Assembly (NCBI RefSeq): GCF_000772945.1
Contig: NZ_JPVN01000002.1
Coordinates: forward strand, 124,001 to 188,000
Length of the DNA stretch: 64,000 bases
Origin: Ureibacillus manganicus DSM 26584
Lineage (GTDB): Bacteria > Bacillota > Bacilli > Bacillales_A > Planococcaceae
Direction: 5' to 3'
In this document: positions 26,003 to 44,778 of the stretch, one piece after another
Layout: each line of letters opens with the position of its first letter
How positions within the stretch are numbered: the first letter of the stretch is position 1
Translations under genes and position numbers: made by a program
The notes under the pieces: model-generated
Databases searched by the model: none
What the model was told of the DNA's origin: nothing
Seen by the model: only the letters and a program-made list of their open reading frames with translations

Positions 26003-26758
26003 ATGAATGAAGCAGCTATTACATTAGACGGCTGGTACTGTTTACACGATTTCCGTGCAATTGACTGGACTTCTTGGAAATTAGTTTCTGAAGAAGAACG
26101 TACAAAAGCGACAGAAGAATTTCTTCAATACTTAGAAAAAATAAACGAAGCACATGTGGCTAAAACAGGTTCCCATGCTTTTTACTCTATTCTTGGTCAA
26201 AAAGCTGACTTTATGTTAATGATTCTTCGTGAAACTCCAGAAGAACTACAAGAACTTGAAGCAGAGTTCAATAAACTTGCGATTGCTGATTTTACTGTCC
26301 CAACATATTCATACGTTTCAGTAGTAGAACTTTCAAACTATCTATCAAAAGAATCAAATGAAGATCCATACCAAAACCCACATGTTCGTGCACGTCTATA
26401 TCCAGAACTACCAAGCACGAAATATGTTTGCTTCTATCCAATGGACAAGCGCCGTGAAGGTAATGACAACTGGTATATGCTTTCTATGGATGAGCGTCGT
26501 AAATTAATGCATTCTCACGGATTAATTGGGCGATCATATGCTGGTAAAATAAAACAAATTATTACAGGCTCTGTCGGTTTAGATGATCATGAATGGGGCG
26601 TTACTTTATTCTCAGACGATATGCTACAATTCAAAAAAATCGTTTATGAAATGCGTTTTGATGAAGTATCAGCACGTTACGGAGAATTCGGTGAGTTTTT
26701 AGTTGGTAACCTGCTTGATCAAGAACGTTTACTAAAATTCTTATCTGTATCTAAATAA
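26003..26758 (+). CDS. hemQ: Coproheme decarboxylase (chlorite dismutase-like)
   Basis: 251-aa HemQ, which oxidatively decarboxylates two propionates of coproheme to make haem b in the Gram-positive coproporphyrin route. Sequence markers are [35 protein letters not shown] and the proximal-His region [18 protein letters not shown] (His near 172). [23 protein letters not shown] completes the second ferredoxin-like half. GGGAG precedes the ATG. It is followed by a nest of palindromic repeats and an IS element instead of a simple terminator. Confidence 0.95.
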
Positions 26759-26838
26759 AAGAGGCTGGACAAAAGATAAATTTTACAGAAAGTCAGTTCT
26801 ATTTATAATAAAAATCTGCTAACTTAATTTTAGAAAAT

Positions 26839-26965
26839 CGTTCGTTGGAGAGGCATGCGAAGACTCCTGCAGGACGTAGAAGCAGTCATGAGACCCCGGA
26901 GAGCTTTAGCTCCCGGAGGCTCATGGCTTCCCTGCGGAAAGCGAAGCATGCATCGGAAACGAACG
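26839..26965. repeat. GC-rich palindromic repeat (about 127 bp)
   Basis: Outer arms CGTTCGTT and AACGAACG (26839-26846, 26958-26965) enclose GGCATGC/GCATGC and an inner stem CATGAG...CTCATG around CCGGAG/CTCCCGG. G+C is clearly above the surroundings. It resembles the dispersed palindromic repeats of Bacillus-type genomes (by memory of the GACTCCTGCAGGA / CCCCGGAG wording); it is non-coding. Confidence 0.7.
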
Positions 26966-27050
26966 TCACTATATCAAAAAGGTACAATCCATTTGAATGA
27001 ACTGCACCCCAATTGTTAGACACGTCTAACAATGGAGGTGCAGCTTTTTT

Positions 27051-27563
27051 ATGGCGAAATATACATCTGAAGGAAAATTACAAGCAGCTCTACGCTACTT
27101 AGATGGAAAAGAAAGTTCAACTGAAATCGCTGAATCAATGGGAACTAATCACGCAGCGATTCTAAAGTGGGCGAGACTATATGAACATCATGGTGTAGAA
27201 GCTTTTATTAAACGGTATACAAATTATACTGTACAGTTTAAACTAGACGTACTAAATTACATGATTGAACACGGTACGTCCTCACGTGAAACAGCAGCTA
27301 TCTTTAACATACCTACTCCCTCTACACTTGATAGCTGGAAAAAACAATTTGAAACAAAAGGACCTGATGCCCTTCAATCAAGGAAAAAGGGGCGTCTATC
27401 CATGAAAAAAGAAACGAAAAGACAACTAAAACAAGCACCAGTAGAAGGTTCATCTGAAGCACTCCAAGCACGCATCAAACAACTTGAAATGGAAAATGAG
27501 TATTTAAAAAAGTTGAACGCCTTAGTTCAAGACAAGGAAATATCACCAAAAAAGACAAGGTAA
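27051..27563 (+). CDS. IS3-family transposase OrfA (helix-turn-helix)
   Basis: 170-aa DNA-binding subunit. It carries two helix-turn-helix units (KLQAALRYLDGKESSTEIAE and FKLDVLNYMIEHGTSSRETA) and a C-terminal leucine-zipper-like helix (ALQARIKQLEMENEYLKKLN) used for multimerisation. The slippery heptamer A-AAA-AAG at 27548-27554 lies four codons before the stop. Slipping one base back leads into the frame of OrfB, giving the OrfAB fusion that acts as transposase; OrfA alone normally represses. Confidence 0.93.
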   Translation: MAKYTSEGKLQAALRYLDGKESSTEIAESMGTNHAAILKWARLYEHHGVEAFIKRYTNYTVQFKLDVLNYMIEHGTSSRETAAIFNIPTPSTLDSWKKQFETKGPDALQSRKKGRLSMKKETKRQLKQAPVEGSSEALQARIKQLEMENEYLKKLNALVQDKEISPKKTR

Positions 27564-27595
27564 GAGTCATCTTTGAATTAAGGCATAAATACTCG

Positions 27596-28405
27596 GTGAA
27601 GGCGCTTGTGGCATTCGCAGGAATCAAACGTAGCTCATATTACGATTTAGTAAAAAAGATGAATCGACCAGATCCAGATGCCGAGTTAAAGGCTGAAATT
27701 CAAGCCATTTATAACGAACACGAAGGCCGTTATGGATACCGTCGCATTCGAGATGAGCTAGCGAATCGTGGGAAAAAAGTTAATCATAAGAAAGTGCAAC
27801 GTATCATGAAAGCCCTAGGCTTAAAGTGCTTAGTTCGAATGAAAAAGTATAAATCTTATAAAGGAACAGTTGGTAAAATTGCCCCGAATATTTTAAATCG
27901 CAATTTTAAAGCTGAAGCGCCAAATGAGAAGTGGGTAACGGATATTACGGAGTTTAAGTTATTTGGAGAAAAGCTGTATTTATCACCGATTTTAGATTTA
28001 TTTAACGGAGAAATTATTACATATACAATTGGTTCAAGACCTACATATTCTTTAGTTTCTGAAATGGTAGAGAAGGCTTTAATGAGATTACCAGAAGAAC
28101 ACAAGCTACTGATGCACTCTGATCAAGGCTGGCATTATCAAATGAAGCAATATCGTCATGCCCTTGAATCAAGAGGTATTGTTCAAAGTATGTCCCGTAA
28201 GGGAAACTGTTACGACAACTCGGTAATGGAGAATTTTTTCGGTATCATGAAGTCAGAATTCCTCTATTTAAAAGAATTTCAAAGTGTCGAACATTTTAAA
28301 TTGGAACTTGAAAACTATATAAATTATTACAACACGAAACGCTTGAAGGCAAAATTAAAAATGAGTCCGGTTCAATACCGAACTCATTTTATCCTAGTTG
28401 CTTAA
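27596..28405 (+). CDS. IS3-family transposase OrfB (DDE integrase)
   Basis: At least 269 aa in the -1 frame relative to OrfA; the frame is open back to the slippery site at 27548, so the working protein is an OrfAB fusion covering 27051-28405. An HTH_21 region (HEGRYGYRRIRDELANRG) precedes the rve integrase core with catalytic residues in WVTDITEFKLFG (D), LMHSDQGWHYQ (D) and CYDNSVMENFFGIMKSEF (E). The GTG at 27596 may or may not serve as a separate start. Confidence 0.93.
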   Translation: MKALVAFAGIKRSSYYDLVKKMNRPDPDAELKAEIQAIYNEHEGRYGYRRIRDELANRGKKVNHKKVQRIMKALGLKCLVRMKKYKSYKGTVGKIAPNILNRNFKAEAPNEKWVTDITEFKLFGEKLYLSPILDLFNGEIITYTIGSRPTYSLVSEMVEKALMRLPEEHKLLMHSDQGWHYQMKQYRHALESRGIVQSMSRKGNCYDNSVMENFFGIMKSEFLYLKEFQSVEHFKLELENYINYYNTKRLKAKLKMSPVQYRTHFILVA

Positions 28406-28481
28406 ATGAAATAACCGTGTCTAACTTTTAGGGGTCACTTCAATTGAATGGATTGTACCTTTTCACGTATGTCCTAGCCTG

Positions 28482-43712: not shown

Positions 43713-43761
43713 ACTATTTTGCACTTAAAATAACAATATAGATGCGACATTTGACTACGCG

Positions 43762-43802
43762 CACCGTGGTTCGTAACCATCCCACGAAAAAAAACTAAGG
43801 AG
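43762..43802 (+). ncRNA. PreQ1-I riboswitch
   Basis: CGTGG (43765-43769) pairs with CCACG (43782-43786) to form P1. The loop is TTCGTAACCATC, and the tail is A-rich and ends in ACTAAGG. The pseudoknot would pair ACC in the loop with GG of the tail, hiding the AAGGAG ribosome site when preQ1 is bound, so control is at translation. The next gene is a queuosine-precursor transporter, which agrees. Confidence 0.93.
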
Positions 43803-43810
43803 AAATGAAT

Positions 43811-44405: not shown

Positions 44406-44509
44406 ACTAGTTAACTAATTGTTCGGATACGGAGAAAGGTTGCGGTAGCGCGACCACCGTCAGAGCAGAGCCTAGATTAGAGTTTAGATGAGAATAGCCG
44501 AGTAAAATT

Positions 44510-44778
44510 GATGAATAAGAATAGTAACGAAAATCGTATGGTTTAGAGAGCTAGTGGTTGGTGTGAACTAGTGCATACCTTTCGTGAATGGGTCTTATGA
44601 GAGCAGCTGGCGTTAGTCTGCTGACGTTTTTCCTACGTTATAAGGAAGTGTTTATTTCGTTTTTAGTTAAATAAACACGCCAAGTGGAAGTAATTCGTAT
44701 ACTTCAACAGAGGTGGCAACGCGGTATTTATCGTCCTCTACAAAAGGGTTTTCTCTTTTGTAGAGGGCTTTTTTATTT
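44510..44778 (+). ncRNA. Tryptophan T-box leader with terminator
   Basis: AATAAGA pairs with TCTTATG to close stem I. The GA motif AGAGAGCTAGTGGTTGGTG is followed by the specifier TGG (Trp codon, 44589-44591) in GTGAATGGGTC. The conserved T-box AGAGGTGGCAACGCGG lies at 44709-44724. The terminator stem CCTCTACAAAAG (44735-44746) pairs with 44754-44765 and is followed by GCTTTTTT. Uncharged tRNA-Trp should stabilise the antiterminator and switch on trpDCFBA. The leader also has about 100 nt upstream of stem I with a GC-rich hairpin (GGTTGCGGTAGCGCGACC). Confidence 0.93.

What the first reader, a model, noticed from the sequence alone, without database searches (positions are those of the whole stretch)
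26761..28480. IS3 element in the exact centre of a perfect palindrome that itself lies in a larger palindromic repeat
Removing the IS rejoins GGTACAATCCATT-TG-AATGGATTGTACC, a 13-bp-arm perfect palindrome (17 bp with the A/T run), inside outer arms GAGGCTGGAC/GTCCTAGCCT, with another 127-bp GC-rich palindrome next to it. Insertion into the loop suggests hairpin targeting, an ability described for some ISs that choose terminators or REP elements.
Basis: partly seen in the sequence, partly recalled or inferred. Interest (0 to 1): 0.6.

Follow-up and report, generated by a model that had tools for sequence, protein, structure and literature searches.

The report
Mobile element that lands in terminators
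A type of bacterial jumping gene found in this group of soil bacteria and their relatives usually inserts into the loop of DNA hairpins, mostly ones that look like gene-ending signals, which probably gives it fairly harmless landing sites.

Summary
An IS3-family, IS150-subgroup element (26998-28442) sits at the centre of a 17-bp-arm palindrome inside one of 23 copies of a ~300-bp dispersed repeat. None of the other 22 carries an IS at that spot, so they serve as empty sites. Of 113 usable unique copies (Bacillales and one Vagococcus), 88 lie in a stable hairpin spanning the junction, against 91 of 904 control sites 45-90 bp away. In 39 of the 76 strongest hairpins the insertion is within 1 bp of the axis. 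Targets mostly look like intrinsic terminators (A-run, arm, loop, arm, T-run) near gene ends. A 3-4 bp duplication is usual (84 of 113). I saw no shared target sequence and no orientation bias. A minority of copies is not in hairpins, and the window copy lacks a duplication. Known relatives in behaviour are IS1397 and ISPsy8 (IS3 family, REP hairpins) and IS1272 (IS1182 family, terminators). The new part is an IS150-subgroup clade, in many Bacillales genera, that enters terminator-like loops of unrelated sequence and keeps a short duplication. My ten literature searches (open-licence papers only) did not find this described. It is a new variant of a known behaviour.

The parts
26998..28442 (+). 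IS3-family (IS150-subgroup) insertion sequence, 1445 bp, ends TGAACTGC...GTCACTTCA
   Evidence: homology boundaries of copies in other genomes; transposase family matches
26998..27024 (+). left terminal inverted repeat of the IS
   Evidence: part of inverted repeat I1; sequence read
28416..28442 (+). right terminal inverted repeat of the IS
   Evidence: part of inverted repeat I1
27002..27050 (+). terminator-like hairpin of the IS itself (27002-27043) followed by a T run (27045-27050), directly before orfA; it contains the GGAGG in front of orfA
   Evidence: I2; first 48 nt fold at -10 kcal/mol or lower in 110 of 113 copies, and a T run of 4 or more follows in 103 of 113
27051..27563 (+). orfA, helix-turn-helix protein
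   Evidence: PF13518, PF01527
27548..27554 (+). AAAAAAG, the place where a -1 frameshift would join orfA to orfB
   Evidence: sequence; frame positions; frameshifting not measured
27500..28405 (+). orfB frame, DD35E transposase, presumably expressed by frameshift
   Evidence: NF033516 330.7 bits; PF00665, PF13276, PF13333; DD35E spacing counted on the translation printed
26977..26993 (+). left arm of the target hairpin, AAAAGGTACAATCCATT
   Evidence: (L001)
28447..28463 (+). right arm of the target hairpin, AATGGATTGTACCTTTT
   Evidence: (L001)
26994..26997 (+). left half of the hairpin loop (TGAA)
28443..28446 (+). right half of the hairpin loop (ATTG); no duplication with the left half
26761..26997 (+). 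left part of a dispersed ~300-bp repeat (23 places in this genome by my count), starting GAGGCTGGAC
28443..28480 (+). right part of the same repeat, ending GTCCTAGCCT
26843..26961 (.). GC-rich imperfect palindrome of the repeat
   Evidence: fold z = -4.1
26003..26758 (+). gene upstream, chlorite-dismutase family (HemQ-like, the name hemQ is recalled), ending just before the repeat
   Evidence: PF06778 233.3 bits
28482..28652 (-). small convergent ORF (56 aa, membrane-like by eye) on the other side of the repeat
   Evidence: translation; similar sequence follows hemQ in L236

Best explanation
The IS belongs to an IS150-subgroup clade of the IS3 family, spread through Bacillales, whose transposase prefers DNA hairpins as targets and joins the IS into or next to the loop with a 3-bp stagger. 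Shown: position at or near the loop, 3-4 bp duplication in most copies, no shared target sequence, terminator-like make-up of most hairpin targets, gene-end context. Inferred: the transposase (OrfAB, or its HTH part) recognises the extruded hairpin or cruciform, or the symmetrical DNA that precedes it, and the usual targets are intrinsic terminators because these are the commonest short near-perfect hairpins in such genomes. The host probably pays little, because the IS lands between a gene's end and the next gene. In the window the target was the terminator-like hairpin at the end of a dispersed repeat, which lies in the gap where the nearest relative has a terminator-like hairpin after hemQ.
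For: 113 usable unique copies: 88 in a strong hairpin spanning the junction against 91 of 904 sites 45-90 bp away. With 116 copies: MFE mean -16.7 against -7.7 in 5077 distant sites, Mann-Whitney p = 2e-39; unbulged-stem score >= 22 in 74 of 116 against 111 of 3232 sites. Axis: 39 of the 76 copies with stem score >= 20 are within 1 bp of it, the duplication touches the loop in 67 of 76, and the distance scaled to hairpin half-length averages 0.12 against 0.5 for uniform placement. Duplication of 3 or 4 bp in 84 of 113, with varied triplets. Terminator make-up: 66 of 92 hairpin sites have 5 or more A before or T after the core within 8 bases, against 162 of 836 control hairpins; 56 of 92 have 4 or more on both sides, against 7.7%. 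Gene context where both sides could be called: convergent 24, tandem 31, divergent 2 of 57. By IS lineage: 66 of 82 have at least one copy in a hairpin. Empty sites: none of the other 22 copies of the repeat in the genome has an IS in the small hairpin. After hemQ in 24 genus genomes, by eye, 16 have a hairpin with A/T runs, 4 a hairpin without a clear T run, 2 are cut off and 2 show none. Wider family: 4 of 4 IS1397 copies read, and one Leuconostoc relative (39% OrfB identity), pass the same hairpin criterion.
Against: 25 of 113 copies miss the strict criterion and L006, L068 and L136 have a good duplication but no hairpin, so the preference is not absolute. The window copy has no duplication, and 28 of 113 copies show none, so some junctions have been altered or were made otherwise. 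Only 3 of 11 IS150 sites read in E. coli pass the same criterion; 8 of 11 lie beside hok genes, mostly at an imperfect GCCCC...GAGGC stem. ISLla3 lies inside a gene, and ISKpn8 and an E. coli plasmid relative fail the strict cut. The control is positional; no unrelated IS of the same genomes was scored. No step of the reaction was observed.
Confidence: 0.85

Rival explanations
1. Survivorship: the IS inserts widely and only copies in harmless terminator loops are kept.
For: Gene-end context (24 convergent, 31 tandem, 2 divergent of 57) is also what selection against gene damage would leave.
Against: Selection is hard to reconcile with copies within 1 bp of the hairpin axis (39 of 76) and with so few hairpins at positions 45-90 bp away (91 of 904), where an insertion should be about as harmless. 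Breaking a terminator is itself a cost.
Confidence: 0.08
2. The transposase follows RNA polymerase: it enters where transcription stops, and the hairpin matters only because it is a terminator.
For: 66 of 92 hairpin sites have an A or T run beside the core, against 162 of 836 control hairpins; sites are at gene 3' ends.
Against: No bias for the T-run side (stronger T side 29, stronger A side 34, ties 29). The insertion is at the loop, not at the T run. Hairpins without terminator make-up are used: GC-rich palindromes (L224-L226), AACGTTCCCAAA..TTTGGGAACGTT palindromes (L140, L141), and REP for IS1397.
Confidence: 0.1
3. The target is recognised by sequence: a conserved palindromic motif, as REP is for IS1397.
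For: Some genomes reuse one palindrome family several times (L140, L141 and others of genus g17; L147-L149).
Against: Within 9 bases of the centre no base exceeds 0.49; only the outer A and T runs reach 0.5-0.65 (84 copies). Arms differ freely between copies.
Confidence: 0.05
4. The palindrome is not the target but an extension of the IS's own inverted repeats.
For: In the window alone the arms and IS ends read as one 48-nt inverted repeat, 81% complementary.
Against: Homology between copies typically stops at TGAACTGC / TCACTTCA and flanks differ. Near-identical palindromes without an IS are present in other copies of the repeat.
Confidence: 0.01

Closest known systems
IS1397 / ISKpn1 / ISPsy8 (IS3 family, REP-targeting)
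   Same: IS3-family transposase and insertion in palindromic units; for ISPsy8 at the symmetry axis with a 3-bp repeat (PMC1525189, passages read). IS1397 has nearly the same ends (TGAACTGCACCCC), is the name on most of the 15 best E. coli rows (of 993 records), and 4 of 4 copies read sit in a hairpin that I recognise as REP from memory.
   Different: Those targets are one repeat family per host. Here the hairpins are unrelated in sequence and mostly terminator-like. OrfB identity to IS1397 is 54%, and IS1397 falls outside the Bacillales clade.
IS1272 / TnSha1 (IS1182 family)
   Same: Targets hairpins, several confirmed as transcription terminators, without sequence consensus and in both orientations (PMC4923244, passages read).
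   Different: Unrelated transposase; enters the stem, deletes part of the hairpin and makes no duplication. The present IS usually keeps both arms and duplicates 3-4 bp.
IS150 (E. coli)
   Same: Same subgroup; OrfB 51% identical; similar end sequence; AAAAAAG frameshift (recalled).
   Different: 8 of 11 copies read lie beside hok genes and only 3 of 11 pass the hairpin criterion. Ends are TGTACTGC / CAGTACA.
Class C group II introns
   Same: Recalled: they insert next to intrinsic terminators.
   Different: Retroelements that enter after the hairpin, not in its loop; recalled, not compared here.

Membership tests
IS3 family | IS3-type transposase with DD35E core | tested here: met
   NF033516 330.7 bits, cut-off 160; rve and HTH_21 domains; 35 residues between D and E counted on the translation
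IS3 family | two frames with a -1 slippery run | tested here: met
   orfA and orfB in -1 register with AAAAAAG at 27548; frameshifting itself not measured
IS3 family | TG...CA ends with inverted repeats | tested here: met
IS3 family | 3-4 bp target duplication | tested here: met
   84 of 113 copies; absent in the window copy
IS150 subgroup | transposase groups with IS150 and not with IS2/IS3 | tested here: met
   OrfB 51% identical to IS150 and 29% to the best hit in the K-12 IS2/IS3 region; tree, drawn with a midpoint root and with long, unsure distant rows
REP-targeting IS (IS1397 type) | insertion in REP sequences | tested here: not met
   targets are terminator-like and other hairpins of unrelated sequence
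REP-targeting IS (IS1397 type) | insertion at the axis of a palindrome with 3-bp duplication | tested here: met
   most copies, not the duplication in the window copy
IS1272/TnSha1 type | partial deletion of the hairpin and no duplication | tested here: not met
   both arms present and duplication usual
IS1272/TnSha1 type | IS1182-family transposase | tested here: not met
   IS3 model instead

The most novel reading that the evidence does not exclude
Hairpin recognition is an old trait of the whole IS150/IS1397 part of the IS3 family. REP for IS1397, hok-leader stems for IS150 and terminators for the Bacillales clade would then be lineage-specific tunings of one structure-guided targeting ability of a DD35E transposase, acting on extruded cruciform DNA. 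The clade would be a natural set of terminator-loop integrators.
Probability: 0.4. Interest if true: 0.7.

Novelty: new variant of a known kind. Interest (0 to 1): 0.55.

Why it matters
How DNA transposases choose targets is understood for few IS families (recalled). Here a diverse clade, with several near-identical copies in some genomes (equal alignment scores), appears to use one structural rule (hairpin loop) in many hosts, so the rule can be tested with natural variants. It would explain how such elements multiply without breaking genes, predict where they will be found, and make terminators readable as landing pads. The natural spread of duplication, loop size and offset gives direct hints on the geometry of the target complex.

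Tried and rejected
Orientation hypothesis: the IS carries its own conserved terminator-like hairpin at its left end (110 of 113 copies), so I expected it to land co-directionally with the terminator it breaks and to replace it. Rejected: T-run side stronger 29, A-run side stronger 34, ties 29; tandem gene pairs in IS direction 10, against it 21, p = 0.07. The hairpin covers the GGAGG before orfA and more likely protects the IS from outside transcripts (a recalled idea, not tested).

Dropped rows: one search took loci L001-L033 and L064-L234 (not the repeat copies L034-L063). 68 rows were dropped (28 with an incomplete end, 23 low-scoring fragments, 17 with a missing flank) and duplicates merged, leaving 116. 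Three (L104, L115, L146) were removed later, because an extra stretch before the right end had made me set the end wrongly, leaving 113. still include these three. Copies are not independent: some share a genome or lineage (82 lineages). In the family search 59 of 261 genomes had a match at E <= 1e-100, and it scored only two candidates per genome; 20 multi-copy genomes were searched more fully. The protein search kept the best 80 of at least 557 relatives. One kept copy is from Vagococcus (L179), the rest from Bacillales as far as named.

IS150 comparison: 10 E. coli copies, picked by hand from 24 listed, plus the K-12 one; several are at the same hokA site. Too few for statistics. Sister-strain empty sites: not testable. 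One search translated the small ORF in a wrong frame; one search is right.

Literature: ten searches gave no paper on IS3-family insertion into terminator loops in Bacillales. Only open-licence papers are held, so absence there proves little. PMC1525189, PMC4923244, PMC6211511 and PMC9208149 were read as passages (for PMC6211511 also abstract and outline); all others were seen as listings only. PMC6211511 and PMC9208149 did not bear on target choice.

Full report
What is there. The window lies in a 4.05-Mb genome close to Ureibacillus/Lysinibacillus: genus-mate G001 shares a contig length of 149808 with Ureibacillus acetophenoni. At 26998-28442 is an IS3-family element: OrfA with helix-turn-helix domains, a slippery AAAAAAG at 27548, OrfB with the DD35E integrase core. 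It is the only full copy in its own genome; the four other matches are partial or short.

The target. Rejoined, the site is AAAAGGTACAATCCATT-TGAAATTG-AATGGATTGTACCTTTT, 17-bp perfect arms with the IS at the middle of the 8-nt loop. It folds at -25.0 kcal/mol with 23 spanning pairs; the best of 44 control sites near it is -15.9. The hairpin is the right-hand end of a dispersed repeat of about 300 bp, with 34 matching pieces in the genome that I joined by hand into 23 places. Its ends are typically GAGGCTGGGACA / TGTCCCAGCCTC, slightly changed here. Loops in other copies read CCAAATTGAATGATGG or CCATTTGAATGATGG and the like; in two copies (L040, L049) the hairpin is degenerate; none of the 22 holds an IS in it. 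In 24 genus genomes the gap after hemQ holds other sequence: by eye 16 have a hairpin with A/T runs there, 4 a hairpin without a clear T run, 2 are cut off and 2 show none. In the nearest (L236) the hairpin AAAATAGACCAGTAGCC...GGTTACTGGTCATTTTT stands directly between hemQ and what looks like the same small convergent ORF as here. So the repeat seems to occupy the place of the hemQ terminator, and the IS broke its terminator-like hairpin. The window copy has no duplication (GAA left, ATT right). The left half fits one loop variant and the right half another, as if two copies had recombined; this is an inference.

Other copies. DNA searches of 25 genus and 261 family genomes, a fuller search of 20 of them, and a protein search of named genomes gave loci L001-L033, L064-L154 and L155-L234. 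After dropping fragments, missing flanks and duplicates, 116 unique copies with both flanks remained, and 113 after three mis-bounded ones were removed. The printed flanks show the pattern by eye, for instance AAAAAACGCTATC-ATT|IS|ATT-CGATAGCGTTTTTT (L027) and AAAAAACCTCGTTTACAA|IS|ACAAACGAGGTTTTTT (L008).

Statistics. Unbulged stems with score at least 22 span the junction in 74 of 116 copies, against 111 of 3232 control sites. MFE of the 60-nt site averages -16.7 against -7.7 in 5077 controls (Mann-Whitney p = 2e-39). MFE <= -12 with at least 7 spanning pairs: 88 of 113 against 91 of 904 sites only 45-90 bp away. Of the 76 copies with stem score at least 20, 39 have the insertion within 1 bp of the axis and 67 have the duplication touching the loop. 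Duplications of 3 (70) or 4 (14) bp are present in 84 of 113, absent in 28, and 2 bp in 1; the triplets are varied and A/T rich. The average target is A-run, C-rich arm, A/T centre, G-rich arm, T-run (84 copies). Among 92 hairpin sites, 66 have an A or T run of 5 or more in 8 beside the core, against 162 of 836 control hairpins; 56 of 92 have 4 or more on both sides, against 7.7%. That is the make-up of intrinsic, often bidirectional, terminators. Where both sides could be called, 24 sites are convergent, 31 tandem and 2 divergent.

Against the reading. 25 of 113 copies miss the strict criterion and 15 are weak even by a lax one. L006 lies in what looks like coding DNA with a TGA duplication, and L068 and L136 have duplications but no hairpin. 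No orientation bias exists, which ended my idea that the IS replaces the terminator it breaks with its own. The control is positional, not another IS family in the same genomes. IS150 in E. coli, a member of the same subgroup, behaves differently: of 11 copies read, 8 lie beside hok genes, one is inside an rhs gene, one between a permease and an usher gene, one in an unclear place, and only 3 of 11 pass the hairpin criterion, though many show an imperfect GCCCC...GAGGC stem.

How it works, most likely. The transposase prefers DNA that can form a hairpin and joins the IS with a 3-bp stagger in or beside the loop. This fits the axis clustering, the intact arms and the lack of a sequence consensus. 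That terminators are the main targets may follow from their number and quality as hairpins; other hairpins are used too (GC-rich palindromes of the Sediminibacillus copies L224-L226, the AACGTTCCCAAA palindromes of one genus). Whether the recognised form is a cruciform, a single-stranded hairpin during replication or only symmetrical duplex DNA is not shown.

Place among known elements. In an OrfB tree (midpoint root, for drawing only) the Bacillales elements group together, with ISEnfa3, IS150/ISKpn8, a Serratia/E. coli plasmid pair and IS1397 outside them; the long-branched ISLla3 and Leuconostoc rows fall inside, which is unsure. IS1397, known for REP insertion (PMC1525189, passages), is the name on most of the 15 best E. 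coli rows by DNA, with nearly the same left end. All 4 copies read pass the hairpin criterion, in what I recognise as REP from memory. In the same call a Leuconostoc relative (39% OrfB identity), ISEnfa3 and a Serratia relative (end placed by eye) pass too, while ISKpn8, ISLla3 and an E. coli plasmid relative do not. This hints that hairpin targeting is wider and older than the Bacillales clade, but single copies prove little. The terminator-targeting IS that my searches turned up, IS1272 of the IS1182 family, deletes part of the stem and makes no duplication (PMC4923244, passages). Hence the judgement: a new variant of a known kind.

A striking neighbour. Another copy of the same repeat (G000:C1, L288) holds an IS1182-family element (NF033551, 356.5 bits) at the loop of the big GC-rich palindrome, with a 9-bp duplication AGCTAAAGC. 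Two unrelated IS families thus use the two hairpins of one repeat family in one genome.

Noticed in passing
L288 (G000:C1:123852-125546): An IS1182-family element (490-aa transposase) sits at the loop of the GC-rich palindrome of another copy of the same dispersed repeat, with a 9-bp duplication.
   Followed up: partly
window 26761-26997 and 28443-28480, and 22 other places in the genome: A ~300-bp dispersed repeat with terminal inverted repeats and two hairpins; in the window it lies in the gap where the nearest relative has a terminator-like hairpin after hemQ, so it may serve, or spread, as a terminator.
   Followed up: partly
L104, L115, L146 (genome G189): Three copies of a related IS carry an extra stretch of about 330 bp before the right end, with what reads as a small membrane-protein-like ORF, i.e. 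perhaps an IS with a passenger gene.
   Followed up: no
L003 (G000:C5:47731-47787), L018, L020, L024: Solo left-end fragments of ~50-65 bp of such ISs, by eye terminator-like hairpins with a T run; L018 is followed at once by a right end, like a miniature element.
   Followed up: no
L011, L030, L029: Related ISs have an extra stretch of roughly 130-140 bp between the orfB part and the right end.
   Followed up: no
L278-L282, L285, L287, L270, L262: IS150 and ISKpn8 in E. coli and Klebsiella lie repeatedly beside hok genes, mostly at a GCCCC...GAGGC imperfect stem, a target of their own.
   Followed up: partly
window 43760-43804 and 44502-44741: A PreQ1 riboswitch and a T-box leader, ordinary cis-regulatory RNAs.
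   Followed up: no
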